Source: Bifidobacterium gallicum DSM 20093 = LMG 11596
GTDB taxonomy: Bacteria > Actinomycetota > Actinomycetes > Actinomycetales > Bifidobacteriaceae
Reading direction: 5' to 3'
DNA length: 64,000 nt
Assembly (NCBI RefSeq): GCF_000741205.1
Contig: NZ_JGYW01000002.1
Location: 124,001 to 188,000, forward strand
Shown: positions 1,762 through 59,005 of the stretch, one piece after another
Layout of the letters: every line of letters begins with the position of its first letter
Numbering within the stretch: the stretch's first letter is position 1
Position numbers and translations under genes: made by a program
The notes under the pieces: model-generated
The model's database searches: none
What the model saw: the letters and a program-made list of their open reading frames with translations, nothing else
What the model was told of the DNA's origin: nothing

Positions 1762-2024
1762 CCTTTCCTCCCATTCCGCCCTTCGCCCCTCTCCCCTTTC
1801 CTCATCATCCCGCACGTAAGCTAGTTGCGTTACGTGCGGGATGATTCCAGCCAGTCTCATGCAACATCTTCAGTTACATCCCACCTTCCCGCACGTAAGC
1901 CAGTTGCGTTACGTGCGGGAACATCACCGGCACTCTTTTGCAATGTTCTTAGTTACATCACATTCCCGCCTCTTCCGCACGTAAGCTAGTTGCGTTACGT
2001 GCGGGAGGGCGAACGAAATAAGAA

Positions 2025-2039
2025 TGATAATCATTTTCA
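2025..2039. promoter_or_regulatory. Zur/Fur-like box
   Basis: TGATAATCATTTTCA is a near-perfect 7-1-7 inverted repeat resembling the actinobacterial Zur box and the core of the Fur box. It lies 20 bp after a palindromic repeat and is not placed in front of a recognisable metal-uptake gene, so function is uncertain. Confidence 0.4.
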
Positions 2040-2119
2040 ATATCATTCCCGCCTGCGGCCGCCCCTCCATGCATCATCCCGCACGTAAGCTAGTTGCGTT
2101 ACGTGCGGGAACATGCGTA

Positions 2120-2134
2120 TGAGAATTATTTTCA
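2120..2134. promoter_or_regulatory. Zur/Fur-like box
   Basis: TGAGAATTATTTTCA is a second 7-1-7 box, 10 bp after the repeat at 2078-2109. It has the same character as the box at 2025-2039. Confidence 0.35.
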
Positions 2135-2395
2135 ACATTCCTGCTCGCCCGGTTTCAGGGCACTCTTGTTCATCTTCCGTTCCGCCTTCCACTTCCCCTT
2201 TCGCTCTACTTTCCGCGCTCATTCCCATTGATTCACGCACCACCCTCCCGCACGTAAGCCAGTTGCGTTACGTGCGGGAGAGAAAAGATAGAGGGAACAG
2301 GAAGATATTGATATTGATTACCGAAACGCCCGCATGGAGTATCGTGTACCTCCATGCGGGCGCTTCCCGTATTTGTGGGTTGGCGGGAATGATAA

Positions 2396-3076
2396 TCAGG
2401 CTTCAACTGCGCGAGCGCGCACAGCACGGCCCGACGCGAAGCGGTCGAGCGCTCCAGTGCGAGCGATGGCCATGAATAAGAACCATGTCGCCAGACCAGC
2501 GATGACCACACCGCCAATCACTTCCGTAATTATGTGCACCATGCCGCGGGGGCTGAGCAACGAAACCCCTTGGTATCGCGTGAATAACAGGAACACCCCA
2601 TATTCGAGCGCAACACAGACGCCTGAAATCATCGTTATCGGCAGCGTAAAGACACGCAGTCGCGTGACATAGAACGGCAGCTCGGTGAACAAGCCCTGCA
2701 AAATGGCGGAAGCGAACGTCATCACGATGTCATATTGAGTGCCCATGACCATTTGCGCGAGTACGGTGACGACGTTGACGAACATGGCCGCGCCAGGTTT
2801 GCGCAAAATGAGCATGGCCAGCGGTCCCGAGAAATACCAGACCGCATGCATGATGCTCGTCACGCCGGGAAGGATTGCACTCAGCACTGGCGAGATGGCG
2901 GCGTATGCAAAATTGAACCCCCAGAAAATGACGCCGCATGCCACGCCTAGTGCGGCGCCAACGGCGACATCAGCGGTCCTCCAACGCATGCTCGCACGGC
3001 GCACGGCGGCTGCGGATGCTGCAGAGGAAACGCTGGAGGATGATGAAGGAACTGGTGATTGGGGACGCAAAGACAT
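2396..3076 (-). CDS. YkoE-like ECF transporter permease/S component
   Basis: A 226-residue integral membrane protein. After a Ser/Ala-rich N-terminus of about 30 residues, the sequence MRWRTADVAVGAALGVACGV and the later segments match the YkoE family (ABC_cobalt, PF09819), a membrane component of energy-coupling-factor type vitamin importers often tied to thiamine or hydroxymethylpyrimidine. ATG at 3076 is preceded by AGGAG at good spacing. The ATPase and T component normally needed are not adjacent, so it may use shared modules or its partners may be elsewhere. I looked for a TPP riboswitch upstream and did not see one; the substrate assignment rests on the family only. Confidence 0.65.
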   Translation of the reverse strand: MSLRPQSPVPSSSSSVSSAASAAAVRRASMRWRTADVAVGAALGVACGVIFWGFNFAYAAISPVLSAILPGVTSIMHAVWYFSGPLAMLILRKPGAAMFVNVVTVLAQMVMGTQYDIVMTFASAILQGLFTELPFYVTRLRVFTLPITMISGVCVALEYGVFLLFTRYQGVSLLSPRGMVHIITEVIGGVVIAGLATWFLFMAIARTGALDRFASGRAVRARAVEA

Positions 3077-3308
3077 GGCTCTCCTGCCGCTCGGTGCCGC
3101 ACACAGAATAATCAGAGACGTTCCTTGACCTGCGCGGCTCGGGCGGGAACGCCAAGGACACCGTAGCAGAAGAACGCGGTCGAGCGCATATGTAGCTCAA
3201 CCGATGGCCCTTGGCATGCCCACACCCGAACGCCGATGGTGAACAACTTCATCAATCATCAATCACCGGTCCGTCAATCATCAGAATGTAGCTCAGTCCA
3301 ATACATAT

Positions 3309-4541
3309 TCACGGCAACGGAGGCAGCAAGAAATCAACTGGATTTTCCAAAAAATAACGCAAACCAGTCTGAGCAGCCCCCACGAGCGCCGGATGTTTCA
3401 CACCCATAACTCGTTTTATTTCCACACGCACATTCTCTCTAGCCAAAATCTGTTGCTGAATATCGGTACGCAAATTATCGATATGCTCATCAAGCAATCG
3501 AGCCCATAAACCACCCAATATAACCGTAGAAGTATCCGAAATATTGATAGTGGAAGTCAGTGCAGAAACCATGGCGTGGAACGCATCGGACATCACGCGC
3601 AGCACAGCCGGATCACCATTCTTGCCACGTTTGATGAGCTCTTCAAGCGATTCAAGGCTTGCCGCCTCAGCATCGGATGCGATGCCCGAAAGCTCCACCA
3701 TGGAACGTCGACCCGCATACGCTTCAAGACAGCCCAACCTGCCACACGGGCACTGCGGTCCGTTCAACGACACTGATAAATGACCAAACTCGCCGGCATA
3801 CCCATGCTCTCCGGTCACCAAGTTTCCATTGCGCACCAACGCGCCGCCAATACCGATGTCAGTGGATACATAAATAAACGAGCCATTGGGAGCCGCCGGC
3901 GCGTCAGGGCTGACAGGCGTGGCATACCCGGAGATTTGGGAGATCGCAGCCATATTGGCTTCATTCGATACCTTGACATTCAAGCGCGAGATAAACGGCA
4001 GTTCGGACAAATCCAACTGCTCCCAGCCCAGATTGCGCGCCACCAACAACTTGTTGCCGTCCGCAACCAAACCCGGAAGCGCCAAACCCGCCCCGGCAAT
4101 CAGATACCCCTGCTCCCGCAAAATGGCTTCCTGCTCGCTCAGCATGTCATCAATATGGGAAAAAATAATTGGGGCTTGGGCCAAATGGAAATCCCCGGCA
4201 ATCCAGCGCTCAGCGATGACATTGCCATCAAGATCCATGGCCAGGATGCCGTATCCGTCCGTGTTGACTTGAATGCCAATGCCGCAAATCACACCACCGT
4301 TAATGACCAACGGCGTACTGGGTCGGCCATATACGGCCTGCATTGCCGGGAGCCCCTCCTTAAGAATGCCCCCTTCCAGCAACTTCGTCGCCAACAACGA
4401 TATCGTCGCTTTGGTCAAACCGGTTTTCTTGGCGATGTCAGCACGGCTGAGCGCACGCTCCGAATGCAGAATGGTCGAAATCATCACTGACAGGTTATGG
4501 TTCCGCAAATCCTCTTGATTGATACGACGTAGAGTAGCCAT
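3309..4541 (-). CDS. xylR: ROK-family repressor, XylR type
   Basis: A 410-residue transcription factor with an N-terminal winged helix-turn-helix (LSRADIAKKTGLTKATISLL, residues about 31-50) and a C-terminal ROK sugar-kinase-like domain carrying the zinc-binding CPCGRLGCLEAY signature. Proteins of this type repress xylose genes and are released by the sugar. It is divergent from xylB across about 600 bp, which supports the assignment. ATG 4541 is preceded by AAGGGG. Its probable operator is the TTAAATCATTAAAC site in front of xylB, repeated before the acetyltransferase gene and, with variation, before xylA. Catalytic kinase function is not expected in this subgroup. Confidence 0.85.
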   Translation of the reverse strand: MATLRRINQEDLRNHNLSVMISTILHSERALSRADIAKKTGLTKATISLLATKLLEGGILKEGLPAMQAVYGRPSTPLVINGGVICGIGIQVNTDGYGILAMDLDGNVIAERWIAGDFHLAQAPIIFSHIDDMLSEQEAILREQGYLIAGAGLALPGLVADGNKLLVARNLGWEQLDLSELPFISRLNVKVSNEANMAAISQISGYATPVSPDAPAAPNGSFIYVSTDIGIGGALVRNGNLVTGEHGYAGEFGHLSVSLNGPQCPCGRLGCLEAYAGRRSMVELSGIASDAEAASLESLEELIKRGKNGDPAVLRVMSDAFHAMVSALTSTINISDTSTVILGGLWARLLDEHIDNLRTDIQQQILARENVRVEIKRVMGVKHPALVGAAQTGLRYFLENPVDFLLPPLP

Positions 4542-4816
4542 GCCATCCCCTTAAGTCCTCATCCATAACGATGCCAGTGTATCGCGCTCCACACCTTATT
4601 TTTTAATGCAAGAACACGCCACGCTCACGCATACGGTCGAGCCGTCCGACAGTTACACGCCATACGCCCCGTTGGCTTGGCATCCTCGTAAGGCGCCTCA
4701 GAGGCCACCACCCCCGCAGCACCTTCCATCGGCCACGATAGCGCGAGTGCGCGATTGTACGCACCCCGCGCATCCGCTGCATTCGTGTTGAGCAAAACGA
4801 ACCATCCATGATATAA

Positions 4817-4830
4817 TTAAATCATTAAAC
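4817..4830. promoter_or_regulatory. Candidate XylR operator, xylB side
   Basis: TTAAATCATTAAAC, an imperfect palindrome centred on the C at 4823. The identical 14 bases occur at 7484-7497 before the acetyltransferase gene, and a variant occurs at 23316-23329 before xylA. Confidence 0.55.
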
Positions 4831-4895
4831 TATTGCGTTGGGTGAAGCGGCCACACGGCCACTCGCCGCCACAGCCAGGATCAACCGGCATCCTT

Positions 4896-4927
4896 CCCGC
4901 ACGTAAGGCAACTACGTTACGTGCGGG
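4896..4927. repeat. Palindromic repeat copy
   Basis: A complete copy with perfect 11-bp arms and centre GGCAACTACG, located in the xylB leader region. Confidence 0.9.
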
Positions 4928-5153
4928 AAGGCGATGAGCACAGGAAGCGATGCGTAAGTATGCGTAGGCACTGAAGCCAAGCATCACACAACAAGACCGG
5001 CACCCGTGCTCGCATCCACCCCTGCGGTGACGGCCACCCAGCGCAACAGTTACAGCCCAACCACCGAACAATTCAATCAATCAAACAACTTCCCTGAAGT
5101 GCACCAATCCATCTACCAACATCCACCCACACATCTCGGCAAAGGAGACGATG

Positions 5154-6695: not shown

Positions 6696-6710
6696 GATTA
6701 GTTGACCACA

Positions 6711-6746
6711 AGCGCCGCACTATCTTCCGGCAGTGCGGCGCTTTTT
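6711..6746 (+). terminator. Rho-independent terminator of xylB
   Basis: An 11-bp perfect stem AGCGCCGCACT / AGTGCGGCGCT with a 10-nt loop is followed by a TTTTT run (6742-6746), 16 bp after the xylB stop codon. Confidence 0.9.
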
Positions 6747-6834
6747 ATTGTATGGTGATATGTATTTCTGATATTGCCTCAATACCACCCGAACCGTCAC
6801 CACTCTTGCCCGCGCATATATATCGCACCAATAA

Positions 6835-7455: not shown

Positions 7456-7483
7456 GCACCCACATCCTCTCCATCGAGATATG

Positions 7484-7497
7484 TTAAATCATTAAAC
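7484..7497. promoter_or_regulatory. Candidate XylR operator, acetyltransferase side
   Basis: TTAAATCATTAAAC, identical to the site at 4817-4830, 28 bp upstream of the acetyltransferase start codon. Confidence 0.55.
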
Positions 7498-7736
7498 GAT
7501 TATATCAGCCCTTTCATTTCCGCTCCCGTTTTCACCCTCACCCCATCCCCTCTTCCCCACCCCATCCCTTCTCCCACACACCAGCCTATCCCCCAACGCC
7601 GCCCTTCCCGCACGTAACGTAACTGGCTTACGTGCGGGAAGAATATAGGGTGAAAAGCCAACCACCCCAAGCCGCACGTAACGCAACTGGCTTACGTGCG
7701 GGAGGGAAGCCGACAAGAGGCCGCACCACATCTCAA

Positions 7737-7751
7737 CGATAATCATTCTCA
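7737..7751. promoter_or_regulatory. Zur/Fur-like box
   Basis: CGATAATCATTCTCA, a 7-1-7 box five bases before the palindromic repeat at 7756-7787. Confidence 0.35.
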
Positions 7752-7992
7752 CCTATCCGCACGTAACGCAACTAGCTTACGTGCGGGAAAGCTCCCTGCA
7801 CTACTACCCCTCTAAACGAGTCACCCTCCCCATCCTTCCCGCACGTAACGTAACTGGCTTACGTGCGGGAAGAGATCTGGCAAGAGATGGGCCAATCGCC
7901 AAATGATAACGACGCCCACTCATTCGCGTCTAAGACAACTGGCTGACGCGCGGAATAGCGCCTCATTGACGGCAACGACCCACGAAGGCGTC

Positions 7993-8044
7993 CATCCGCC
8001 CTCTCACGTAACACAACTAGCTTACGTGCGGGAGAGGGCGGATG
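7993..8044. repeat. Palindromic repeat with long flanking stem
   Basis: The left arm has lost CCCGC, but the flanks CATCCGCCCTCTC and GAGAGGGCGGATG are perfectly complementary over 13 bp and extend the ACGTAA/TTACGT stem. The flank sequence is specific to this copy. Confidence 0.8.
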
Positions 8045-8151
8045 GAGGAAAGGAAGTGTAAGGGAAGGCGGGAGAAACATTAAAGCATATAACAATAGCG
8101 CACCACGACGCTGAACGTGTGGTGCGCAGGAGGGATAAATATATTCAATAA

Positions 8152-10608: not shown

Positions 10609-11042
10609 CGCAACCTCCTCGTCGCAGTATTTCCATGGATTGACAACTATCCCCTTCACCGAGGTCGATCAAGCAGCGCTCGAACCGCCCTCAATGCACT
10701 CACCCTAGGCATAATAAGAAGCAGTATGCAAACAATCCGGCGAGTATCCGCAAAAACTCAACAATTCATAATCACAACGATTCTTCATCTACACAGCTGT
10801 ATCTGCTGATTCCGCCACATTTGTACACCCGCAACCGTTTTCGAACCGTTGCGTCACCCTTCTCCACTTCCGCTTGTGCCCTACGCTCCTTCCCGCACGT
10901 AACGCAACTAGCTTACGTGCGGAAAAGGGATGAAGCGACCCCAGCCCCATCCCGCACGTAACGCAACTAGCTTACGTGCGGAAAAGGGACGAAACAATCC
11001 GGCCCCATCCCGCACGTAACGCAACTGCATACTCAGCGTCCC
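10609..11042. repeat. Esterase leader with a tandem of repeat units
   Basis: Upstream of the esterase lie an imperfect 24-bp palindrome (10830-10853) and then repeats at 10892-10922 and 10951-10981 plus a left half at 11009-11026. Starts are 59 and 58 bp apart, and the spacer (ggaaaaggga... ggccccat) is conserved, so this is a tandem array of about 2.5 units. The third unit is cut off just before the end of the GH43 gene. Confidence 0.85.
10830..10853. promoter_or_regulatory. LacI-type operator candidate
   Basis: An imperfect palindrome with outer arms CGCAAC and GTTGCG, and TTTTCGAA inside, lies about 220 bp upstream of the esterase start. It resembles LacI-family sites in general form only. 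Confidence 0.3.
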
Positions 11043-15807: not shown

Positions 15808-15839
15808 CCCGCACGTAACGCAACTACGTTACGTGCGGG
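15808..15839. repeat. Palindromic repeat copy
   Basis: A complete copy with perfect arms and centre CGCAACTACG between the permease and binding-protein genes. Confidence 0.9.
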
Positions 15840-18703: not shown

Positions 18704-19512
18704 ATTACCACCCCTCACTCTCCTCTCTCTTCCCGCACGTAAGCCAGTTACGTTACGTGCGGGACGATACTGGTAGAGCAGAGCAAGTATCTACAGCAGA
18801 AATAAATATGGAAAACCAGGGAACCAGATAAATAACGCAGGCCACTCTCCCCTTGCCGCACGTAAGGCAGTTATCTTACGTGCGGCAGAGCGACGCCTGC
18901 ATTGTTCAGGAGAAGAACGTTCAGAAGGATCTGCGGCCATCACATCAGCGCGGGCCAGTATCCGGTCAGCGTATCGCAATACAGTAACGCAGCCCAGAAG
19001 CGTACGGACGCGCGGACCAGTATCCAGTTTATTGACAGCCCAAGCTCCACACGCAAGCCAATTATGTTGAACGCGCCATCTATGGTGAACATGCCATCCG
19101 TCCGCACATGCCAGCCTTCCCGCACGTAAGCCAGTTACGTTACGTGCGCGAAGAAGACGGAGAAGATACCAAAGCCAAGTCGGCCGCTGCCCATCTCCCC
19201 TCCCTTCCCGCACGTAAGCCAGTTACGTTACGTGCGGATTGATAACGTGTTTCGTTACGCACAGCTTCACCAGAAATAACTTCATGTATTTCTGCAGTTT
19301 CCCAGACCCGCCACAGCCCCGCAGCCAGCGCGTCGCTTCCACGGCACATCCAAAAACTTGGCAAAGCAGCACACGACGCGCGACCCTTCATAAAAACTCC
19401 CCACCCTCACATAACAATTCCCGCACGTAACGCAATTGCGTTACGTGCGGGAATTGGGCGCGACGACGCTGTCGCGGGCGCAGACAAGATTCCCCAGCTT
19501 GCTTTACCTGAA
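18704..19512. repeat. Intergenic cluster of five palindromic repeats
   Basis: Copies lie at 18732-18763, 18854-18887, 19119-19148, 19207-19237 and 19420-19451. The 18854 copy has matched changes in both arms (TGCCGC against GCGGCA). The last is part of a perfect 42-bp palindrome. The rest of the 800 bp shows no gene. Confidence 0.85.
19415..19456. repeat. Perfect 42-bp palindrome
   Basis: This copy has the symmetrical centre CGCAATTGCG, so both arms plus the flanks CAATT/AATTG form one uninterrupted perfect palindrome without a loop. All other complete copies have an asymmetric centre. Confidence 0.9.
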
Positions 19513-21384
19513 CTAACTCAGTGCACGACCCACCAAGCAGCCCACAAAACCGCCTGACCATTCCGTGCTGAGGAATCTGGCATCGATGTCATCAAGCATG
19601 AGCACAGATTCGAGCTCTTCATCAGCCATAAGTCCCAAACCAAGACGCCCATCGGCAAAGACTGCCACCAAACAGCCCTCAGGGTTATCCGGAAGAGTCA
19701 CCATTCGGTCATCAATATGGGCGCCATTGACCACTCGCCAAGTCACACATAGCGAACCGTCATCCTGCGCAACCGGAGGCTGGATGATCACATGATGCAG
19801 ATTATTCTGACGCAGAGTGATGTCGCAATCCGAAGGAAGCACTATGACCGTGCGATCCGATTCCAAACGATGCCACAATACGGAATCGTCGCAACGAAGA
19901 CTCATCCAGTCTGCACCACGCTGTGGCGTGATAGTCAGATCAAGAATTCGCCAAGTGTCCGGTCCTTCCTCAATCACAACATCCGCAACAGCGTCCGCAT
20001 CCGTGTCAATAGTTAATGATTCGACCAAACGACCCAAATTGTACCGGCCCACCAGCCAGCCAGGATCATCAATAGTGTTGTTGTCAGATGCAACAGATGG
20101 CTGTGGATCCCTATCCCACTTCACCGGGTAGAGATAGCTTTGACGGCCAAGGAAATTCAGATGGGATCCATCCTCACACGGTGTTTGAGGCGAACCAAGC
20201 GCTACGAGCCACCAACCCAACGTAGGATGACATAACACGTCAGCGTGGCCGACACATTGCACGCGTTCATCTGACCCGAGATGACGATGGGTAAGAATCG
20301 GGTTTTTCTTGTCAGGATGGAACAAACGGTTACGATCCGTATACACCGTCCGCTCGAGGCGGCATGTATCCGCCCGCGCCCCATCTTCCGTTTCCATTTC
20401 TTCTTTTCCGTCCACATCTTCAACCGCACGTAACGTATCTGTCTTACGTGCGGGAAGGGAGGGGTCGGATGGGCGGTCAGGAGACAATGGAGAGGATGTT
20501 TGCTCAGCATCGTCTTTAATAGCGGCGCGCATGACATAGGGGGAATCCGCAGTCAGGTCGGTATCACAGGAATCAGCATGATGAGAAATCAGCCGAACTG
20601 AGGGGAACTCAGCGAGCGCGGCAGCGAAACCTTCGGGAGCGAGCGTGCGCATGAGCATCTCACTGTGATCAAAAGAAGTGCCACCTTCGGCCGTCATCAG
20701 ATACACATACGGGCCGTGGCGGAATAAATGTGGTCCTTCAGCCCAAACCGCTTCAATACCAAAGCCTTCCCAAATAACAGTCCGAGAGAACGGACCGTAG
20801 TCATCGGCATCCGGCTGCAGCTGCCAGGTGACAGGATTAATTTGTTGCGTCCATACCTGAGTATTCCCTTCCCAACGCGGGTCAACAGATGGGCGCGTTT
20901 GGGTCCACCACACAGAGCCATCAATATCTTCAAATAAATCGGGATCGATGCCGTTAGCACCACGCACCCAGAAGGGGCCATGCCACGGACCTTCCAAGCG
21001 GTCGGCAGTAATCACAAAATTGCCTTCCGCTTCCATAATTTCTTCAACATCACAGCCAGCATCGCGAGCCGCTTGAAAATCGATGTTGGCGACAGTGCAT
21101 GCAATGGCATAACCATTGCCAATGCGACGCAATGTGGGAGCGAAAATCCCGCCAGAATCAGGGACAAAACGCAACAGCAAACGCTCAGCCATGGCGTCGT
21201 CAATCGCGGAGCCCAGCAATTCCCAATGTTGCAAGTCCTGCGACACATGAATCGGAAGGCCTGGAGACATTTCAAAAGAGGAATTCACAAGCGCCACACG
21301 AGTATTGGGCGCATCCCAAATCCAACTGGGATCCGGGTACATACCCGCCAGCACAGGATTGTCAATGGTGAACAGCGAATCCAT
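19513..21384 (-). CDS. GH43 glycosidase with an in-frame palindrome insertion
   Basis: A 623-residue GH43 beta-xylosidase/alpha-L-arabinofuranosidase. It has NPVLAGMYPDPS at the N-terminus (general base Asp), GGIFAPTLRR, and AVWAEGPHLFRHGPYVYL with the likely general acid, then the NPILTHRHLG...GHAD region seen in GH43_11/12 enzymes, and a C-terminal beta-sandwich. Between the blade carrying YVMRAA and NPILTHRHLG lies a polar, acidic stretch of about 60 residues (roughly 295-355) that is foreign to the family and contains the palindromic repeat translated as LPARKTDTLRAV. ATG 21384 has AGGA upstream. It is predicted cytoplasmic and acts on imported oligosaccharides. Confidence 0.85.
   Translation of the reverse strand: MDSLFTIDNPVLAGMYPDPSWIWDAPNTRVALVNSSFEMSPGLPIHVSQDLQHWELLGSAIDDAMAERLLLRFVPDSGGIFAPTLRRIGNGYAIACTVANIDFQAARDAGCDVEEIMEAEGNFVITADRLEGPWHGPFWVRGANGIDPDLFEDIDGSVWWTQTRPSVDPRWEGNTQVWTQQINPVTWQLQPDADDYGPFSRTVIWEGFGIEAVWAEGPHLFRHGPYVYLMTAEGGTSFDHSEMLMRTLAPEGFAAALAEFPSVRLISHHADSCDTDLTADSPYVMRAAIKDDAEQTSSPLSPDRPSDPSLPARKTDTLRAVEDVDGKEEMETEDGARADTCRLERTVYTDRNRLFHPDKKNPILTHRHLGSDERVQCVGHADVLCHPTLGWWLVALGSPQTPCEDGSHLNFLGRQSYLYPVKWDRDPQPSVASDNNTIDDPGWLVGRYNLGRLVESLTIDTDADAVADVVIEEGPDTWRILDLTITPQRGADWMSLRCDDSVLWHRLESDRTVIVLPSDCDITLRQNNLHHVIIQPPVAQDDGSLCVTWRVVNGAHIDDRMVTLPDNPEGCLVAVFADGRLGLGLMADEELESVLMLDDIDARFLSTEWSGGFVGCLVGRALS
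20424..20453. repeat. Palindromic repeat inside the GH43 gene
   Basis: CCGCACGTAA and TTACGTGCGG arms with centre CGTATCTGTC, read in frame on the minus strand. It keeps the reading frame and stops neither protein half. Confidence 0.9.
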
Positions 21385-21819
21385 GAAGAGTCCTTTCACA
21401 AGGCGGATGAACGAATAATGACATCCCTAATGACGAAAACAATGGATGAATATAAACCATCGCCAATCCCTTTCCCGCACGTAACGCAACTACGTTACGT
21501 GCGGGAAAGAGAAAAAGGTCTGACCTGACGATGCCGGCAGATCAGGGAAGAATTGAATTTACTGATATTGGATAAGGCCACCAGACGTGAGTGCAGACGG
21601 CTTATCTGACAACATCACGCCCCAATGGATAGGCGAAAGCCGCCGGTGACTTAAAGCCGGCGGCTTTCGTCGAAGTTCCGCAAATCATACAACAATTGTC
21701 TGATTAGAGAACTTTATTACGGAAAGAAAGAGAAATAATCGAATGGAAACCTGCACAGCCGGTAGAGACGAGAGAAAGGAACTCCGGCTACACAGGCCGA
21801 TTGAGGAAATGTATGACGG
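21385..21819. other. Gap between GH43 and xylA genes
   Basis: Contains one palindromic repeat at 21474-21505 (flanks CTTT/AAAG) and a perfect 13-bp stem-loop at 21634-21669 (CGAAAGCCGCCGG and its complement). The latter may end xylA transcription, although no U-run follows on the minus strand. Confidence 0.7.
21634..21669 (-). terminator. Possible xylA terminator hairpin
   Basis: A perfect 13-bp stem with a 10-nt loop about 150 bp past the xylA stop codon. The missing T-run makes terminator function uncertain. Confidence 0.4.
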
Positions 21820-23518: not shown

Positions 23519-23550
23519 CTCGCACGTAAGACAACTACATTACGTGCGAG
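23519..23550. repeat. Palindromic repeat with paired arm change
   Basis: Arms are CTCGCACGTAA and TTACGTGCGAG. Relative to the consensus, the second C has become T and its partner G has become A, preserving pairing. Confidence 0.85.
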
Positions 23551-24643: not shown

Positions 24644-24986
24644 TCGTTCAGTGTATCGCGTCAGCGGCAGCATTCAAATTCATCGCGGCCGCCGCCTCGC
24701 CCGCACGTAAGATAGTTGGCTTACGTGCGGGAAGCAACGTTTACAGCATTCCTCAAGACATTCATCCACACATCTCTCGCACCAGAGCCTTGTTGCCGCC
24801 CACCACCTCGCCTCACCCCCGCTTGCATTTCCCAATAAATAATCCCCGCACGTAACGCAGTTGGCTTACGTGCGAGGAAAAGAAGCCAGATCCGCCGTTA
24901 TCTAACACGGCAATCTGGCAACGAGGGTGCTCGTAGTCGTACTGGACTAAAGATGACGAAAGATGACGTTATATCAAGGATGAAGC
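24644..24986. repeat. Intergenic region with two palindromic repeats
   Basis: Copies lie at 24700-24731 (centre GATAGTTGGC) and 24845-24877 (right arm ends CGTGCGAGG). No gene is visible. Confidence 0.8.
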
Positions 24987-26270: not shown

Positions 26271-26569
26271 GAATGCTCCTCTATTCATTTCCTCAGCACT
26301 GATCATGCACTACTTCCCTCGCAATATCACCAACTGTACGTTGTTCGGCGTTCTCCCAGTCAAGGACTCAGTCGCGATGGAGGTAGTAGTGCCGACCACC
26401 CTAACATTTCAACCCCTCCACCCGTTGCCATATCTCATTTTTAAGAACATAAGGGGGCTCCCCACCACACCCGGTCCTACCGCACACTCCCCTCTCCATT
26501 TCCCGCACGTAAGCCAACTACATTACGTGCGAAATATCGTATGCAGATATGCGCAACCATTCCTAGCGG

Positions 26570-26603
26570 TGCCGCAGATAAGACAACTACCTTATCTGCG
26601 GCA
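26570..26603. repeat. Strongly covarying palindromic repeat
   Basis: Compared with the consensus ACGTAA/TTACGT, this copy has AGATAA/TTATCT, and G in place of the outer C with its partner changed. The 13-bp stem remains perfect while the sequence has moved, with the centre (ACAACTAC) retained. Confidence 0.85.
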
Positions 26604-26771
26604 AGGCCCTCTCATGACACCCGATATTCTCTCAGACAATCCCGCACGTAAGCCAACTACGTTACGTGCGGGAAGGAGGGGCGATGCGGTGGTGAAAAAG
26701 TTGGAGAGACGCTGATGCTTGAATTGAATGAAGAGTATTTGAAGGATATTCAATATGTGTATATCACTAAT

Positions 26772-31132: not shown

Positions 31133-31616
31133 CATGATGTAATGTTGCAGCCCTTGGGCATTCAATGATCGCAAGAGACAAGCGGTTGACCAACGAATTC
31201 CTGATTATATATTTAGGGAGACTATTCTAGCCCTTTTTCGCTGCTCCATAAACCTATTTTGTCTTTCCCGCACGTAAGACAACTAGCTTACGTGCGGGAA
31301 AGACAAGAACAAGTGCAAGAAGCACCCCCCTGAATCAAAGACGATCCCCGCTTCTTCTTCAGTTTCAGTTCGCTATCGCCTCCCGCCGCCAAGCAATTGG
31401 GCAGAAACTTGAGCTTGCAGGGCTTCAGTTAACCAACGCCATTGCTATTCATCCCAATCGACCGCACCACACGCTGCCCAGCGCACTCCAGCGTCCCCAC
31501 TGCACCCCAGCACATCCCACCCAGTGCCCACAGTACCTGACGACTCACTCCAGCAACTGCAATCGGCACAGTTCAATCATCGAAATATTTGCTCAGCAGT
31601 TCCTAACCGTCACCTT
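31133..31616. repeat. Gap with one extended palindromic repeat
   Basis: A repeat at 31267-31298 is extended by complementary flanks TTGTCTTT/AAAGACAA to give a 48-bp stem-loop (31259-31306) between the convergent tesB and DUF3180 genes, well placed as a two-way terminator. No gene is visible in the remainder. Confidence 0.75.
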
Positions 31617-33055: not shown

Positions 33056-33773
33056 TATCGCGCCTTCCTTACTTTTCATCACACCAACAGCATGTTTTCC
33101 AGCTGCTGCCGTATTTCCTACACAGTTATATTTATTTTTTTCCTGCGCTCTTCAGTTTGCTTGAGCACATTGGGATGGTTGAGTTGCGATGCCGTTGAAT
33201 TCCGACATGGACTTCCGGTAGCCGCTAAATTTCATCCTGTTCGTTCTTCATGTCCTTTCAATTCCTCCTCCTCGCACGCAAGGCAGTTGACAACACGCCT
33301 TCCCGTAGTACCTGTTGCTGGATGCTAGCGCGGGGTGTTGGGTAACGAGAAGCACCCACCACCCTTTCCCCGCACGTAAGACAGTTGCGCTACGTGCGGG
33401 AGAGAGGGGGAAGCATATGGGTATTTCTGGAATTGGTACTGTGGCTATTCCAGAAATACCAATCATTACGTTGCTCCTGCTGCACACAACGCAAGTCTTC
33501 TCCCTCCCCGTAATCTCGAACCATACAGGGCTTTACCCGATTCTTCTCCCCTCTTTCCCACCTCTTCCCCGCACGTAACGCAACTAGCTTACGTGCGGGA
33601 AGAAAAGGGAGGAGATGATGAAAAGGAGGGTAAGGGTAAGGGTAATGGGGAGGGCGAAAAATGATAATGCTAAAAACGAGGGGTGAGGGGGATGTAACAA
33701 ACGAGTGAGAAGCCAAGGGCGCCCACACGGGTGAAGGCACCGAGGGAAGAGTCTCTCGGTGCCTTCGGGATGG
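33056..33773. repeat. Gap downstream of ftsH with palindromic repeats
   Basis: Contains a degenerate left-half copy at 33268-33297 and complete copies at 33369-33400 and 33568-33599, plus a direct repeat of a ggtatttctggaatt-like segment around 33419-33464 that is partly self-complementary. folE and folP, expected after ftsH in related genomes, are not here. The ftsH hairpin closes the region. Confidence 0.7.
33733..33766 (-). terminator. ftsH 3' hairpin
   Basis: A perfect 12-bp stem GAAGGCACCGAG/CTCGGTGCCTTC with a 10-nt loop begins 8 bp after the ftsH stop codon. No T-run follows, so termination efficiency is uncertain. Confidence 0.6.
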
Positions 33774-36412: not shown

Positions 36413-37820
36413 GCACATTATCATGACACAGACGAATGACGTGGCCATAACGTTTCAGCACATACCCTGCAGGCAACTGCACCCCCCGAGATTGTTGGTT
36501 TTCTATGAGGTTCAAGGCCGCCGTCACGTGCACGGCGGAAGCGCGAATGTTTAATTGCGCAAAGACTCGTGCAAGAACTCGCCTACGCAATGCGGGATGT
36601 GCCTCCAACAGCACGTCGCGATCAATCAGCGCGAGGGTTGTGCCGCTATCTGTCGCAACATCAGAAATACCATCAGCATTATCAACGCTCTGCGCACCGA
36701 ACGAGACGGCCTGCTCGTAAACGAGCGCCGCCTGCTCCTGTAGAAAATCAACATCGTCACGATTCGCTGCCGCGAAGGAAGCAAGACGTGACACCATGTC
36801 GCCTCCCGTAAACCGGCTCAGCTGTGGCAGCAGAAGCTGTCTGATCCGCGAGCGCAACGGCAGGTGCACGGCTGATCGAGCACGCCCCTGCGCCTTTTCC
36901 TGATTGGTCCGCCCTTGCTTTTCTCTCTTTTCTTCCCCGCACGTAACGCAGTTATCTAACGTGCGGGAAGACGGGGGGAACGGGGGGCGCGAGGTGCGCT
37001 GTGCTGTTGCATAGTCCGTCACACAGTCAGTTCCATGGCTCGTTCCATGGCTCGTTCCATGGCCCGCAGACGGCTGGGAGGAGTCAGAAGAGACCGAAGA
37101 TGCGTGCTGGGACGATTCATCCGACGTGTCCGTCTCACCGCAAGCGTTACGCGCGCTCAGAAACTCGCCGTTCGTAGGATCATCCCAAAACTCGAGTCCC
37201 AGCGATTCGCAGATTTGCGTGGTGTCTGCGCGCGTCAGATCAAGTAGGGGACGCAGCAAAGCAACGTCCGCAATTTGCGTGCGCTCAGGCATGCCGGCCA
37301 TGCCGTCCAACCCACCCGACGTCAGCAGGTTGATGAGCACGGTTTCCGCCTGATCATTGCGCGTATGGGCAAGCAACACAGCCTCGGCGCCAGTCCGGCC
37401 GGCCACCCGAGTGATCGTCTCATACCTCATCTGACGGGCCGCAGCCTCGGAACCGCGTTGGCGCATCGTTTGCGGGTCCAGCACGATACGTTCCACGATG
37501 ACTGGCTCGAGCCCCAGATCGGCGCACTGTTTAGCAGCGCGAGCAGCAACTTCCGCAGACCCCTGCTGCATGCTGTGGTCCACAATCACCGCGCCGCACC
37601 GCAGTCCCCACGAAGTACAGACCGTGCGCGCCGCCGCTGCCAACGCGAGCGAGTCGCGGCCTCCTGAACAGGCGACAAGGATGAGCGGAGCGTCTTTGTT
37701 GACCTGATGCTCGCCGTGCGTACGAAACCGCTCGTCCCAGCCGTTCAAGGTCGCGTCAAACCGTGTCAGCGATTTACGAACGGCTCCGATTGCCAGTTTC
37801 ATTGGCGCGCTATAGACCAT
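36375..37820 (-). CDS. tilS: tRNA(Ile)-lysidine synthetase with large insertion
   Basis: TilS modifies the CAU anticodon of tRNA-Ile with lysine and is essential. The PP-loop motif CSGGRDS (residues 51-57) and the LAHTRNDQAET segment are intact, as is WDDPTN near 212-217. In ordinary family members the arginine-rich segment (here RSRIRQLLLPQL, from 323) follows DPTN after about 8-10 residues; here about 100 residues intervene. That insertion is Ser/Thr/His-rich, contains a 12-bp tandem (GTSH repeated) and, at about residues 285-295, a translated palindromic repeat. ATG 37820 has AAGGAG. It is upstream of, and overlaps, hpt. Confidence 0.9.
   Translation of the reverse strand: MVYSAPMKLAIGAVRKSLTRFDATLNGWDERFRTHGEHQVNKDAPLILVACSGGRDSLALAAAARTVCTSWGLRCGAVIVDHSMQQGSAEVAARAAKQCADLGLEPVIVERIVLDPQTMRQRGSEAAARQMRYETITRVAGRTGAEAVLLAHTRNDQAETVLINLLTSGGLDGMAGMPERTQIADVALLRPLLDLTRADTTQICESLGLEFWDDPTNGEFLSARNACGETDTSDESSQHASSVSSDSSQPSAGHGTSHGTSHGTDCVTDYATAQRTSRPPFPPSSRTLDNCVTCGEEKREKQGRTNQEKAQGRARSAVHLPLRSRIRQLLLPQLSRFTGGDMVSRLASFAAANRDDVDFLQEQAALVYEQAVSFGAQSVDNADGISDVATDSGTTLALIDRDVLLEAHPALRRRVLARVFAQLNIRASAVHVTAALNLIENQQSRGVQLPAGYVLKRYGHVIRLCHDNVHANRGYSGKHRS
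36936..36967. repeat. Palindromic repeat inside tilS
   Basis: A copy with left arm CCCGCACGTAA and right arm TAACGTGCGGG (one mismatch), read in frame on the minus strand as SSRTLDNCVTCG. The translation frame differs from the one used by the copy inside the GH43 gene. Confidence 0.9.
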
Positions 37821-38373
37821 TGGGGCTCCTTCCAGCGACCATCCTAAGTCAAGGTCTCCTCTCCCCTTTCGTTCTCATTTCCAGATTCCGCTCCCCTTCT
37901 TTCCCGCACGTAACGCAACTAGCTTACGTACGGGATGATGGCGCGGAAGAATAGGGGAAACGCTGTATCGATATTTATTACAACCATCTTCACCGCACGT
38001 AAGGCAGTTGCGTTACGTGCGGGATACTATGGCGACATAGATGTATCGACAGTTGTTGCACCCACCCCCTCCCGCACGTAACGTAACTGGCTTACGTGCG
38101 GGAGGGGGAAAGCAAGTAAGTTGGGAACTGTTCTCAATTTCTATGATTGGAGGCTCCCCACGAGAAACGTAATATACCTGGCATCAAGGGCACGGCCGTC
38201 CCCGTCACTCACCCTTCCCGCACGTAACGCAACTGGTTTACGTGCGGGAAGGAAACAAGAGGAGGGACGCAAGCCGACCAGCAATACACAATGCAGTTGA
38301 TAGACAGCCATCAAGGAGGCCCTACCAAGTAAGCCCCCTCCAAGGAGCTCCCCCAAACCGCCCGCTTGCATGC
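37821..38373. repeat. Intergenic cluster of four palindromic repeats
   Basis: Copies lie at 37903-37934, 37993-38022, 38071-38102 and 38217-38248. The third is extended by CCCCCT/AGGGGG flanks (38065-38108). The second has the opposite centre orientation to the others. No gene is visible. Confidence 0.85.
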
Positions 38374-42635: not shown

Positions 42636-43426
42636 ACTTATCCACCTTACCGGCTCAGTGCCGCGCCACACTCATGACAAAAGTAATAGACCATATCCCC
42701 CCCTTCCGTTATTGTGTTCCACCCACTCAAACCATTCATATTTGCGACCATTTCAAACACCTTCAAACACCGCACCCGCTCGTCACCCCGGCGTGTCGAA
42801 CACAATCACCCCCCTCAGCTCCTCCTGACCGCCCCACCCCAGCGCTCTCTCTACCCACCCCTCTCTATCTCCACCACTAGAATCCGCCACATCCGCCTTC
42901 CCACACCATCCCTCCTCTTTCACCTTCCCGCACGTAAGCTAGTTGCCTTACGTGCGGGGAAGAAATCGCCGGGAGCGCAGAAATTGCTGATATCCCTGTC
43001 GTATCGCGCAGCACGGTAACAGCCGGGATTGCAGATCCTTCAGGTGGCTCAGCGGACCGCTCGGTCTACTAGGAAACCCTGCCGCTCGTTCCTCCCTTTA
43101 TTATTTCCCCTTCCTCCCCTTTCTTCCACCCCAGCCCGCACGTAAGGCAACTGTCTTACGTGCGGGAGGAAAAAGGCACACATTCATCAAGATTCAAGGA
43201 CGCCCCAAACGCGTTCTTATGCCCGTCCTTACGCAGAACAGACCCCGCTCTCTTTCCACACGTAACGTAACTGGCTTACGTGCGGGAAGAAACGAAAGAC
43301 AACGTCCATAAAGATTCCGGAATATCCCGCAAACTTAATAATTATTTCCGCTATTGCGCCGCACGAACCCCACCCCACCATCCCGCACGTAACGTAACTG
43401 GCTTACGTGCGGGAGGAAGCGAAGGG

Positions 43427-43441
43427 TGAGAATGATTCCCA
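43427..43441. promoter_or_regulatory. Zur/Fur-like box
   Basis: TGAGAATGATTCCCA, 14 bp after the palindromic repeat at 43382-43413. Confidence 0.3.
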
Positions 43442-43590
43442 TTGCCACACAACCTTAGGCAGCATTAGGCAACCTTAGGCAACCCCAGACAGTCCCAGGC
43501 GGCTCCACCCCACCAGCATCCGGCAGACATCGCGCCCAACCCTACCGCGCACGTAACGTAACTGGCTTACGTGCGGGATAAGTAGAAGCG

Positions 43591-43605
43591 TGAGAACGAT
43601 TCCCA
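43591..43605. promoter_or_regulatory. Zur/Fur-like box
   Basis: TGAGAACGATTCCCA, 14 bp after the palindromic repeat ending at 43577. Sequence and spacing repeat those of the box at 43427-43441. Confidence 0.3.
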
Positions 43606-43831
43606 TTACCGCGCAGCTTCAGCAAGATTCTCTCAACTGCCTCTATTTGTTACCCAACTAGCCCCCATCCCGCACGTAACGCAACTAGCTTACGTGCGGG
43701 ATAGAGGATGATCAGGAGGTGAGATAGTTCGTTGGGGTATGCGCGCAATTGCTAGCATGAATGGCCATTGCACACGGTCAACGACGGCCCGTGCCATAAC
43801 GCGTCAGAGACGAGCGCAGAAAGGCTTCATC

Positions 43832-49596: not shown

Positions 49597-49660
49597 TGCA
49601 CACCCCCTTTATCCCGCACGTAAGCTAGTTACGTTACGTGCGGGATAAAGGGGGTGTGCA
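49597..49660. repeat. Palindromic repeat in a 64-bp extended palindrome
   Basis: The copy at 49613-49644 (centre GCTAGTTACG) is flanked by TGCACACCCCCTTTAT and its exact 16-bp complement, so the whole is a 27-bp stem around a 10-nt centre. Confidence 0.9.
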
Positions 49661-49993
49661 GGCCATGAGGCAAGATCGGAAATGAGAATACTGTTTTCCG
49701 TACAGCGGACCACAAAAGATGCGAAATCTGGCGGATTGCACAACATGTCCTCCCACCCCCAGCCTGGACCGGACTTCTCTTCCATCAGCGCCGCCTTGCG
49801 CATCCCCAACCATCTTCTTATCGCCATACTCGCCCCTTCCCGCACGTAACGCAATTGCCTTACGTGCGGGAGGGAAACTTTTTAATGGGACATTCAAAAA
49901 CAGAACAATATCTGCTCAATAGCGCAAAATCAGGGAAGGAAAGGCTGCCGAAAGACAGCACCACGCAATCCAGATACGCAGCTGCTGTAGTAA

Positions 49994-50098: not shown

Positions 50099-50099
50099 G

Positions 50100-50886: not shown

Positions 50887-51603
50887 CTCCCTATTGTAGG
50901 TCCTACCATTCTTCCCTCCCGCACGTAACGCAACTGGCTTACGTGCGGAGGAGGTGACCAAAGAGCATCGACTACACCATCATCAACCACATGCACTCAC
51001 CATAAGAACCATCAAGAACCTCGACAAAGTCAAGCCGTCCGGCCACTCGCCGACCTCCCGTCCCCGCACGTAACGCAACTGGCTTACGTGCGGGGACGGG
51101 AGGCTGGAGAGAAACCACCGGGACCATCACCCTCCATAAGAAATCACAACACAACGCTTCAAAACCTCAGCAAACTCGTCGCCCAATCCGCCCCCCCCTC
51201 CCGCACGTAACGCAACTGGCTTACGTGCGCGAAAGACGAGGGTACGAATGTGGAAATCATATACGAAAATCAGGAATGCAATATATACTATTTATTTCGA
51301 TATAAGTAATTATTAACACCCACAAATAGTCAAACTATACAACCATATACTATTAACATTATTCACAATTTATATTGGATTGTTTTCTGCAAACTTATAT
51401 TTCCCTTTACTTCACTCACCATGTGCCAATCCAAGCCATATCTAGCTGAACGTTTCATGAATCGCGCTCAGAGCACACTCTCAAGAAGATTTCAGCAACA
51501 ACATTTAGCGTAAGAGCAAACGTGTCAAGCCAATACACCTACGCCCTGTAGTGACTTGACATCAAACCAACCCAGACACCCTATAGAAGAAACGAGGCCG
51601 ATC
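50887..51603. repeat. Gap with three palindromic repeats and AT-rich stretch
   Basis: Copies lie at 50918-50948, 51063-51094 (extended to 51054-51103 by CCTCCCGTC/GACGGGAGG flanks) and 51200-51229, all with centre CGCAACTGGC. From 51250 to 51400 the DNA is markedly AT-rich, likely promoter DNA for the plus-strand gene. No other gene is visible. Confidence 0.8.
51054..51103. repeat. Palindromic repeat with 9-bp extended stem
   Basis: The consensus copy is lengthened by flanks CCTCCCGTC and GACGGGAGG, unique to this copy. Confidence 0.9.
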
Positions 51604-52128: not shown

Positions 52129-52189
52129 CGGAAATAATTTTCAATATCCTTTCTGCGCCGCACGTAAGCCAACTGCGTTACGTGCGGCG
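52129..52189. repeat. Palindromic repeat with adjacent Zur/Fur-like box
   Basis: A copy at 52156-52189 has paired outer changes (CGCCGC/GCGGCG). A weaker 7-1-7 box CGGAAATAATTTTCA lies 12 bp before it at 52129-52143. Confidence 0.75.
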
Positions 52190-57135: not shown

Positions 57136-57277
57136 TGACCACTGCCGCCACGCTTGGCAGCCCTTGAATGCAGCGCGGCCACATCATGCATGACGTGATG
57201 TGGCCGCGTTCTTCATACGGAGTACTCCTTGCGGCGAAGGCGCCATGGTACGGCATTTTCACATCAATGCCGTACCT

Positions 57278-58075
57278 TCACCCCACAAGCCACTTGGCGT
57301 TCTTAACACTGTAGAGCGGAATCAACGGGATAAGGATTGGCGTATGCGTGCTGTAATGGCGGTATGCCGGGTCCTGACCATAGTTGCGTTCCTGGCGCAG
57401 TTCCAACCGGCGAGCGCCGCCAAACATAATCCATACAATGCACACATAGCCAATGATGGCAGCAGCCCATTGCCAAAATCCGCGTAGTACGGTCACGCCG
57501 GACACGAATACACCCGTCCACGTCAATACTTCACCAAGATAATTAGGGCAACGCACGATGCGGAACACGCCCACGTCACAGAACCTGTCTGGATGATGGC
57601 GCTTGAAGCGGTTCTTCGTAAAATCGGCCACCGACTCGAGTATGATGCCGGTTCCCATAATTGCAGCACCCACAATGCCCACAGCATCCACGGGAGCATG
57701 ATTACTCAAGCGGAATAACACGGGACTCGCTTCACAAGCATACAGTGCGGCGCAAGCAATCCATGTCAGCACTTTCAGCGGTAATGCCACAGTGCGTCCA
57801 TGCTCAATCGCGGCTTGGCCCACATCACGGTAGGAAGCGCTACGGCTTTCACGCACAATCAGGTATGTGCCCAGCCGCAGGCCATACACTACCAGCAATG
57901 CCGACATCACAATAGTCAACGGATCAAGGCCGCCCCATATGCCGAACGCGACGAGCATTGTCACGCCAATGCCCGCGATGGAGAAGCCGTATCCCACAGA
58001 AATAAACCAGATATACCGGTAAAACCCAATGGCACTGATAATAAGTGCCACAATACATATCAAGAGAAATGCCAT
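57278..58075 (-). CDS. DUF1295 membrane protein (steroid reductase-like fold)
   Basis: A protein of about 265 residues with six or seven membrane segments and the DUF1295 pattern FRIVRCPNYLGEVLTWTGVF near residue 195, which is shared with isoprenylcysteine methyltransferase and 5-alpha-reductase relatives. It may be a NAD(P)H-dependent or SAM-dependent membrane enzyme acting on a lipid. The only in-frame ATG is at 58075 with no ribosome-binding site; TTG starts upstream (to 58153) would give an extra basic N-terminus. Confidence 0.75.
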   Translation of the reverse strand: MAFLLICIVALIISAIGFYRYIWFISVGYGFSIAGIGVTMLVAFGIWGGLDPLTIVMSALLVVYGLRLGTYLIVRESRSASYRDVGQAAIEHGRTVALPLKVLTWIACAALYACEASPVLFRLSNHAPVDAVGIVGAAIMGTGIILESVADFTKNRFKRHHPDRFCDVGVFRIVRCPNYLGEVLTWTGVFVSGVTVLRGFWQWAAAIIGYVCIVWIMFGGARRLELRQERNYGQDPAYRHYSTHTPILIPLIPLYSVKNAKWLVG

Positions 58076-58274
58076 GGTAAAAGTGTAAACGAAGTTCAAC
58101 TCCCTGACATCTTTCGCGAGGGTATGGTCTCGCCGTGGACGTATCACGCGCAATGCCGTTTACAGGGGGTAAAGGACAAAATGTGTGTCTCAACATGCTG
58201 CGAAGGCGTTGTATTTGCTGGCATGTCGCAGTGTTATTTTGGTCGTTCACTCCAAGAGTTTCAGTCACAACGAC

Positions 58275-58304
58275 GAAGGCGCCATCCTTGCGGATGACGC
58301 CTTC
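58275..58304 (-). terminator. tRNA-Glu 3' hairpin
   Basis: Stem GAAGGCGCCATCC/GGATGACGCCTTC (one mismatch) with a 4-nt loop, just downstream of tRNA-Glu on the minus strand. No T-run. Confidence 0.6.
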
Positions 58305-58310
58305 TGGTTG

Positions 58311-58382
58311 TACCCCCTGAGAGAGTCGAACTCTCGTTGTCAGATTGAAAGTCTGGTGTCCTAACCGTTAGACGAAGGGGGC
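58311..58382 (-). tRNA. tRNA-Glu (TTC)
   Basis: A 72-nt cloverleaf. Acceptor GCCCCCT/AGGGGGT, the TCGTCTAACGG D-arm pattern of tRNA-Glu, anticodon loop CTTTCAA (TTC), T-loop AGTTCGACT. CCA is not encoded. Confidence 0.95.
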
Positions 58383-59005
58383 CTGACAACTCGATTAATA
58401 TTACAGGAATCTCGACGTCATGCAACTTCGGCGTGTCGCGCCCATTTCTCACGATTTCACACTTCCCGTCTTGCTCCCCATCACTTCCCCGAGCCACCCC
58501 GCATCGGCAAGTATGTACCGCTTCTCCCAACCTTCCATCACCATCTCCCATCATCCTCTCTACTTCCCGCACGTAAGCCAGTTACGTTACGTGCGGGAAG
58601 TGCGGGCCCAGGACTAGGATCACGACCTTCACACCCCTACTCGTCACCACCTGCGCAGTCAACAGCATCACAGCCCAACATTCACTCGCCCGCACGTAAG
58701 CCAGTTACGTTACGTGCGGAGTTCAGGCCTAGAAAACCCTTGGTAGGCAACACAGTGATAATCATTCTCATCTTCCCGCACGTAACGCAACTGGCTTACG
58801 TGCGGCGAAGGGAGCAAAACGGGAAGGCGCATCAGCCGGGAAGGCAAGACAGGAGAGACAAGAGGACGACGGAGAGCTTGAAAAACGGAGGGTGATAGAA
58901 CGTGAACAAGAAGACGACGGGAGCCAAGGGGGCAACACAAGTAAGCGGGCGACACGGCCAAGCCAGCCGCCCATGCCGAGCAGCCTCCACCGTCACCGAC
59001 ACTCG
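58383..59005. repeat. Gap with three palindromic repeats and a Zur/Fur-like box
   Basis: Copies lie at 58566-58597, 58689-58719 and 58775-58805; the first two share one centre orientation and the third has the other. A clear 7-1-7 box TGATAATCATTCTCA lies at 58756-58770, four bases before the third copy. No gene is visible. Confidence 0.8.
58756..58770. promoter_or_regulatory. Zur/Fur-like box
   Basis: TGATAATCATTCTCA, near-perfect 7-1-7 inverted repeat between two palindromic repeat copies. Confidence 0.4.

What the first reader, a model, noticed from the sequence alone, without database searches (positions are those of the whole stretch)
1809..58805. A dense family of short palindromic repeats (53 copies in the window)
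Nearly every gap from 1.8 to 52 kb and at 58.6 kb carries one to six copies of a 32-bp palindrome: arm CCCGCACGTAA, 10-nt asymmetric centre (GCYAGTTRCG or its complement), arm TTACGTGCGGG. They average about one per 1.2 kb, but none occur in 44-49.5 kb or 59-64 kb. Copies in one gap mostly share orientation. Size and placement recall REP/BIME elements, but the arms match no REP family I know, and no REP-associated transposase is seen here.
Basis: partly seen in the sequence, partly recalled or inferred. Interest (0 to 1): 0.82.

Follow-up and report, generated by a model that had tools for sequence, protein, structure and literature searches.

The report
Regional palindrome family in Bifidobacterium chromosome
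A 32-base DNA palindrome is repeated about a hundred times, mostly between genes, in one 180,000-base stretch of a Bifidobacterium chromosome and practically nowhere else in that genome, which looks like a selfish repeat that spreads only locally or like marks on one chromosome domain.

Summary
The repeat is real: 49 window copies at up to 3 mismatches, 0 expected. The new fact is territory: 106 of 107 genomic copies lie in C2:82.8-262.3 kb. Of 112 Bifidobacterium genomes held, only this one (107) and B. dolichotidis (51) are rich in it; G010 has 7 of a variant form, the rest 0-3. All 51 of B. dolichotidis lie in a collinear 150-kb stretch; 14 of 16 comparable gaps occupied here carry half-sites there. 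The stretch is core chromosome, mid-replichore in six relatives. Arms differ at 0.7% of sites while the centre varies, except an inner A and T, suggesting protein recognition. No Y1 (RAYT-type) transposase on C2, no GTAG head, almost no T tracts. A second family, nearly exclusive to this genome, is absent from C2 1-320 kb. Best reading: a REP-like repeat multiplying locally under an unidentified protein. REP territories around rayt genes are in print (PMC2817692), so a variant, not a new category. Rival: selected domain-marking sites. Mobility is not shown.

The parts
1809..2278 (.). 5 copies of the 32-bp palindrome (1809, 1888, 1974, 2078, 2247), same core orientation, convergent gap; the orthologous gap carries half-sites in B. 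dolichotidis
4896..4927 (.). 1 copy, divergent gap
7607..8032 (.). 5 copies (7607, 7671, 7756, 7838, 8001) plus one decayed copy at about 7923-7954
10892..11040 (.). 2 copies at 59-bp spacing plus a broken third unit at about 11009
15808..15839 (.). 1 copy
18732..19451 (.). 5 copies (18732, 18855, 19119, 19207, 19420)
20423..20454 (.). 1 copy inside a called gene (GH43-type protein, ORF 19513-21399, minus strand)
21474..21505 (.). 1 copy
23519..23550 (.). 1 copy
24700..24876 (.). 2 copies
26502..26672 (.). 2 copies plus a diverged but self-complementary copy at about 26571-26602
31267..31298 (.). 1 copy with 8 extra matching flank pairs (long-armed)
33369..33599 (.). 2 copies
36936..36967 (.). 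1 copy inside a called gene (36375-37820, minus strand); the aligned codons carry a copy with 2 mismatches in B. dolichotidis
37903..38248 (.). 4 copies
42927..43700 (.). 6 copies, divergent gap
49613..49870 (.). 2 copies; the first has 18 extra flank pairs (29-bp perfect arms)
50918..51231 (.). 3 copies; the middle one has 9 extra flank pairs
52157..52188 (.). 1 copy
58566..58806 (.). 3 copies

Best explanation
A territorial, REP-like repeat. The unit is an asymmetric 10-bp centre between two 11-bp half-sites that a protein reads base by base. New copies arise locally: inside a gap by tandem duplication (59-bp units, shared orientation), between gaps by copying into nearby non-coding DNA and protein linkers. 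The family therefore stays within the 150-180 kb where it began, before this species and B. dolichotidis split. The recognising enzyme is not a Y1 transposase encoded in the territory; it is unidentified, or was lost. Some copies later gain longer arms by copying their own flank backwards, as fold-back synthesis at a hairpin would do. Shown: territory, conservation pattern, longer gaps, tandem units, arm extension in a few copies, absence of a Y1 gene on C2. Inferred: that a protein acts on the sites, that copying is local, and the fold-back step.
For: 106 of 107 copies in C2:82.8-262.3 kb; 29 of 97 gaps over 100 bp occupied inside, 0 of 66 outside on C2 1-320 kb; 0 copies in 360 kb sampled from four other contigs. 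Of 112 genus genomes only this one and B. dolichotidis are rich in the family; the second keeps 51 of 51 copies in a collinear stretch, and of 16 comparable gaps occupied here 14 hold at least one half-site there. Occupied gaps are longer than in four species without the family (medians 609-750 against 152-240 bp, 7-9 gaps each); empty gaps by medians of 20-100 bp. Repeated 59-bp units, some with identical spacers, and mostly shared orientation within gaps. 5 copies have at least 8 extra flank pairs, 0.14 expected. A second family, 169 copies at up to 1 mismatch, is absent from C2 1-320 kb; of 111 other genus genomes 106 have 0 exact copies and 5 have 1-2. REPs are described as species-specific, and territories of at most 200 kb around rayt genes are described (PMC2817692, section 8 read).
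Against: No transposase or recombinase shared by both territories was found, but the look was incomplete: Y1 family over this genome, 10 proteins by Pfam, and for B. dolichotidis only a list of ORFs and tblastn with two Y1 queries over 320 kb. No insertion with clean edges was seen. Arms are nearly invariant among copies at up to 3 mismatches (94 with 0, 11 with 1, 1 with 3); only about 12 further half or decayed copies show at 4-5 mismatches in the territory (my count). This also fits selection on each copy. Added DNA per copy (medians 96-171 bp against four species, 65 against B. dolichotidis) exceeds the 32-bp unit. In B. dolichotidis the arms do not covary, so a hairpin is not being kept there.
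Confidence: 0.45

Rival explanations
1. Domain-marking protein-binding sites. A DNA-binding protein covers this chromosome stretch through about 100 sites kept by selection and acts in folding, segregation or silencing of that domain, as MatP does through matS in E. coli.
For: Conservation is patterned: arms 0.7% changed (copies at up to 3 mismatches), six centre positions 13-45% changed once oriented, but central A and T 106 of 106. A second species keeps the family in a collinear stretch and largely in the same gaps although flanks have diverged. Half-sites in B. dolichotidis change independently and also occur singly and in direct arrays, as protein half-sites may. Few decayed copies in this genome. 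Exact 59-bp spacing recurs, in one array with spacers only 10-20 of 31 bases alike.
Against: The stretch is mid-replichore in six relatives, neither origin nor terminus. 110 of 112 genus genomes lack a rich family, so it is not a conserved need. Up to six copies per gap with longer gaps is more than a marker needs. No candidate protein was found.
Confidence: 0.28
2. Passive sequence turnover: slippage, tandem duplication and fold-back template switching at a chance palindrome, with no protein involved.
For: Tandem 59-bp units; excess of long-armed copies with private flank sequence (in B. dolichotidis 7 of 61 with at least 4 extra pairs, 1.08 expected); half-site direct arrays of 24-28, 36-37 and 57 bp in B. 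dolichotidis.
Against: Does not explain why arms stay nearly invariant while centre and spacers change, nor presence in 29 gaps with mostly unlike flanks. By local alignment the inverted match of a copy's own flanks is not significant (z 1.6 to 1.9) and goes once the few high-scoring copies are set aside; the direct-orientation control reached z 2.4 at 45 bp.
Confidence: 0.12
3. RNA-level element: terminators or mRNA-stabilising hairpins.
For: Mostly intergenic, hairpin-capable; a few copies have very long arms; three sub-gathering miRNA-model hits overlap copies.
Against: 0 of 106 copies have a T-rich tail after the right arm and 3 an A-rich stretch before the left; nearest gene end is a stop in 56 of 106 (53%), random 50%. 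Arms do not covary in B. dolichotidis. No reason for a territory.
Confidence: 0.07

Closest known systems
REP/BIME repeats with RAYT transposases, in particular the territorial REPs (at most 200 kb around a rayt gene) of Nunvar et al. 2010, PMC2817692 (section 8 and passages read)
   Same: Short palindrome with a non-complementary middle, high copy number, mostly intergenic, species-limited, several copies per gap, and a territory of the same size.
   Different: No GT(A/G)G head in the consensus flanks, no Y1 transposase on the contig, none of the genome's three Y1 genes flanked by the repeat, arms almost invariant, overlapping collinear territory and largely the same gaps in two species.
MatP/matS (E. 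coli Ter macrodomain) and other domain-specific binding sites (PMC3116907: start of abstract seen in a search listing; details recalled)
   Same: Palindromic, protein-readable sites restricted to one chromosome domain.
   Different: Many more sites in a smaller domain, clustered in gaps, mid-replichore, rich in 2 of 112 genus genomes; no protein known.
Rickettsia palindromic elements (recalled, no call)
   Same: Palindromic repeats that also sit in frame inside genes.
   Different: Shorter, regional, unrelated sequence.
lox/dif-type recombination sites (recalled, no call)
   Same: Two inverted arms around a short asymmetric core.
   Different: About a hundred copies in both orientations in one region; no recombinase identified.

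Membership tests
REP with RAYT | short imperfect palindrome, many copies, mostly extragenic | tested here: met
   106 copies in the region, 102 in gaps
REP with RAYT | GT(A/G)G head beside the palindrome (PMC2817692, passages read) | tested here: not met
   by consensus only: commonest flank bases reading outward from the 9-mer arms are C C T T on the left and G G A A on the right; no GTAG or GTGG
REP with RAYT | cognate Y1 (PF01797) gene flanked by the repeat | tested here: not met
   3 Y1 genes, on C5 and C3, none on C2; no 9-mer arm within the fetched 1.5-kb flanks. B. dolichotidis tested only by tblastn with two Y1 queries over 320 kb, nothing better than E 1.9
REP with RAYT | BIME-type alternating orientation | tested here: inconclusive
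   copies in a gap mostly share orientation; a half-element alternates with full copies in the gaps near 208, 224 and 232 kb of C2
territorial REP | copies confined to at most about 200 kb | tested here: met
   180 kb here, 150 kb in B. dolichotidis
territorial REP | territory surrounds a rayt gene | tested here: not met
   no PF01797 match on C2
MatP/matS-type domain sites | sites restricted to one chromosome domain | tested here: met
MatP/matS-type domain sites | domain is the terminus | tested here: not met
   prfA ortholog lies at 0.22-0.34 of the genome from dnaA in 6 single-contig relatives; inferred for this genome from shared gene order
MatP/matS-type domain sites | a cognate binding protein | not testable with these tools
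   needs pull-down or ChIP
intrinsic terminator | T tract after the stem | tested here: not met
   0 of 106 on the right side, 3 of 106 on the other strand
Rfam RNA families | match at gathering score | tested here: not met
   over gathering only tRNAs, in the window, in 7 further loci and in 5. Below gathering, miRNA models overlap copies at 49.6 kb (two models, best E 1.7e-4) and 33.6 kb

The most novel reading that the evidence does not exclude
The chromosome of this Bifidobacterium is divided into territories, each marked by its own palindrome family: TTACGTGCG sites over about 180 kb, CTGACCA-N3-TGGTCAG arrays of 53-bp period over much of the rest. The families are read by different proteins and are mutually exclusive, a sequence-coded domain map of a bacterial chromosome that is replaced as species diverge.
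Probability: 0.15. Interest if true: 0.87.

Novelty: new variant of a known kind. Interest (0 to 1): 0.6.

Why it matters
Short palindromic repeats are usually genome-wide. A family that has stayed in one collinear 150-180 kb stretch, partly in the same gaps, through the divergence of two species lets one ask directly what keeps a repeat local: local copying or selection for a chromosome domain. It shows a REP-like territory without a rayt gene. In the listings I saw (3 of 3 papers, 20 of 56, none found, 12 of 154) no title or abstract start described such repeats in Bifidobacterium; that is not proof of absence from print.

Tried and rejected
By my reading much of the arm variation there is at CpG, so neutral decay would give the same result. 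Flank pairing beyond the arms is weak position by position; the run-length test shows an excess, carried by few copies; the local-alignment test is not significant.

Genomic island, plasmid or phage origin: the stretch has largely the gene order of the relatives compared. No match of window 1600-11100 or 7590-8045 in the plasmids or of 7590-8045 in the phages. One viral contig matches the pattern but with a different centre. The four other taxa found carry single hairpins with unlike centres.

Terminus or origin domain: not supported. A dif-like consensus typed from recall gave nothing in C2 and one 4-mismatch hit in the B. dolichotidis stretch. No rRNA in five 20-kb loci at the edges. The middle of the territory was looked at for ORFs without result. 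The corresponding stretches of G010, G024, G037 and G045 hold no comparable family.

Candidate proteins: Pfam on 10 less conserved or unplaced products of the territory gave no recombinase shared by both species; one IS607-type resolvase (C2:234989-235459) has no counterpart in the B. dolichotidis stretch. B. dolichotidis ORFs without a counterpart were only listed.

Limits: gene calls are my own script's; gene names are recognised from N-termini except for the 20 proteins scanned with Pfam. No tree was built, so 'closest relative' rests on presence of the family and protein identity. A first Y1 tblastn used the wrong reading frame for two of three loci and was repeated with two. Gap lengths in relatives are estimated from tblastn ends. 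Papers: one search listed 20 of 45; some searches were seen as listings only.
Full report
What is there. The window lies at C2:124001-188000 of a 2.0-Mb, 12-contig genome. It carries 49 copies of CCCGCACGTAA-N10-TTACGTGCGGG at up to 3 mismatches, none expected. In the whole genome the inner 28-bp pattern occurs 94 times exactly and 107 times at up to 3 mismatches, against 1 for the reversed control. I found 106 of these in C2:82,816-262,344; the place of the last one was not listed. In C2 1-320 kb, 29 of 97 gaps over 100 bp inside this stretch hold copies and 0 of 66 outside. In 360 kb sampled from C1, C3, C4 and C5 there was none. The half-site CTTACGTGCGG gives 105 matches in the genome; the 100 listed all lie in the same stretch.

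The stretch. By my recognition its genes are ordinary core genes, in an order largely shared with the congeners compared. In six single-contig relatives with dnaA at the start, the prfA ortholog lies at 0.22-0.34 of the genome, so the stretch is mid-replichore there. Non-coding DNA is 26% inside against 17-19% outside on C2. 102 of 106 copies are in 29 gaps of all orientations, and the nearest gene end is a stop in 56 of 106, close to random.

Who else has it. Among 84,980 species genomes the exact pattern was found in six stretches (the tool may leave the window's own genome out); the only kindred ones are two in Bifidobacterium dolichotidis. Among the 112 genomes held of the genus, at up to 3 mismatches, this one has 107, B. 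dolichotidis 51, G010 7 of a variant form, and the others 0-3, in the range of the control (0-5). All 51 of B. dolichotidis lie in C2:162-312 kb, collinear with the stretch here; the edges are not identical, since its first two lie about 8-14 kb further out than the first copy here. Of the 29 occupied gaps here 16 could be compared: 14 hold at least one half-site 9-mer in B. dolichotidis; of 54 comparable empty gaps 22 do (Fisher p 0.0013; 0.0055 for gaps over 150 bp). Outside the stretch 4 of 48 comparable gaps hold a half-site there and none here. One copy inside a gene sits at aligned codons in both species. The simplest conclusion is that the family was in this territory before the two split. 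The same stretch in G010, G024, G037 and G045 has no comparable family.

Anatomy. Among the 106 copies at up to 3 mismatches the arms carry 14 substitutions in 1908 sites (0.7%); 94 copies have none, 11 have one, 1 has three. About 12 more half or decayed copies show at 4-5 mismatches in the territory (my count). The centre is variable (13-45% at six positions in the 94 copies that could be oriented) except an A and a T present in all 106. The centre is asymmetric: typically one half reads CTRGC, the other TTRCG before TTACGTGCGG. Typed by the last two bases, 69 of 106 copies are GC/CG, 7 CG/CG, none GC/GC, and 30 have another half. Common descent from one asymmetric ancestor would give the same. 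Flanks are pyrimidine-rich to the left and purine-rich to the right (purines 25% and 75%). Some gaps carry a half-element that alternates with full copies. B. dolichotidis has more degenerate palindromes, often at 36-38 or about 50 bp spacing, and direct arrays of half-sites at 24-28, 36-37 and 57 bp.

How it grows. Gaps with copies have medians of 609-750 bp here against 152-240 bp in four species without the family (7-9 gaps each), and 716 against 394 bp in B. dolichotidis (16 gaps); empty gaps differ by medians of 20-100 bp and -20 bp. Of 80 neighbour spacings 9 are exactly 59 bp, in arrays whose spacers range from identical to 10-20 of 31 bases alike. In-gene copies lie in poorly conserved linkers. 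The arms of 16 copies run on for at least 4 pairs (4.05 expected) and of 5 for at least 8 (0.14 expected), with private sequence. In B. dolichotidis 7 of 61 run on for at least 4 (1.08 expected). A local-alignment test over all copies is not significant (z 1.6 to 1.9), its direct-orientation control reached 2.4 at 45 bp, and without the few high-scoring copies nothing is left. So a few copies seem to have been extended by something that copies one flank backwards, and most have not.

What it is not. Not an intrinsic terminator by its tails, not an Rfam RNA at gathering score, no match to the plasmids and phages held with the pieces tried. Pairing is not kept in B. dolichotidis, though that can also be neutral decay. 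Not a classical REP of a resident RAYT: three PF01797 genes exist, none on C2, none beside the repeat.

Second family. CTGACCA-N3-TGGTCAG occurs 78 times exactly and 169 times at up to one mismatch, often in arrays of 53-bp period or multiples; listed places are on C1, C3, C4, C5, C7, C8 and the last 6 kb of C2, and there is none in C2 1-320 kb. Of 111 other genus genomes 106 have no exact match and 5 have 1-2; B. dolichotidis has none. The listings were capped, so the full map on C4 and C5 is not known; seven 20-kb samples of C5, two of C4, one of C1 and one of C3 had none. The two families are complementary as far as seen.

Reading. Two facts must be joined: strict territory and base-specific constraint. 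REP territories of at most 200 kb around rayt genes are described (PMC2817692, section 8) and were explained there by preferential production near the gene. The simplest account here is the same kind of local multiplication with another, unidentified or lost, recognising protein. Species-limited families, tandem units and longer gaps fit this. The rival, selected sites marking a chromosome domain, explains better why few decayed copies exist here and why the same gaps stay occupied; it lacks a protein and is burdened by the absence of a rich family from 110 of 112 genus genomes. The experiments named under next steps would separate them.

Noticed in passing
G000 C1, C3, C4, C5, C7, C8 and C2:322353-322477 (e.g. 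L150 4038-4780, L152 256-1646): A second palindrome family, CTGACCA-N3-TGGTCAG, often in arrays of 53-bp period with diverged spacers; almost exclusive to this genome in the genus and absent from C2 1-320 kb.
   Followed up: partly
L099 8766-8855, L100 9138-9349, L101 12665-12816, L102 8245-8334, L103 7973-8124 (genome G010): In another congener, arrays of long palindromes (CGCACGCAAA..TTTGCGTGCG) of 61-62 bp period at five places on two contigs; perhaps a related family. These stretches were fetched because a search had hit them, so its spread is unknown.
   Followed up: partly
G101 C2:209349-209657 (L093 9349-9657): Tandem units of mostly 57 bp (19 codons) each carrying the half-site, upstream of the part aligned with gene 88, the neighbour of a rho-like gene; whether it is coding was not settled.
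   Followed up: partly
C2:208480-209120, 224360-224940, 232680-233080, 262220-262300: A half-element (GTAACTCGCTTACGTGCGGG or its complement, near CCTTGGAAATAAGG-like sequence) lies among full palindromes; these four gaps share this longer unit.
   Followed up: partly
C2:234989-235459 (L014 14989-15459): IS607-type MerR-resolvase protein in a stretch without counterpart in B. dolichotidis.
   Followed up: partly
C2:267809-268027 and L155 12243-12483: Small clusters of ACCGTGGTA at about 52-106 bp spacing, possibly operators.
   Followed up: no
window 50026-50286 and 58311-58382: Four tRNA genes on the minus strand near palindrome-bearing gaps.
   Followed up: no
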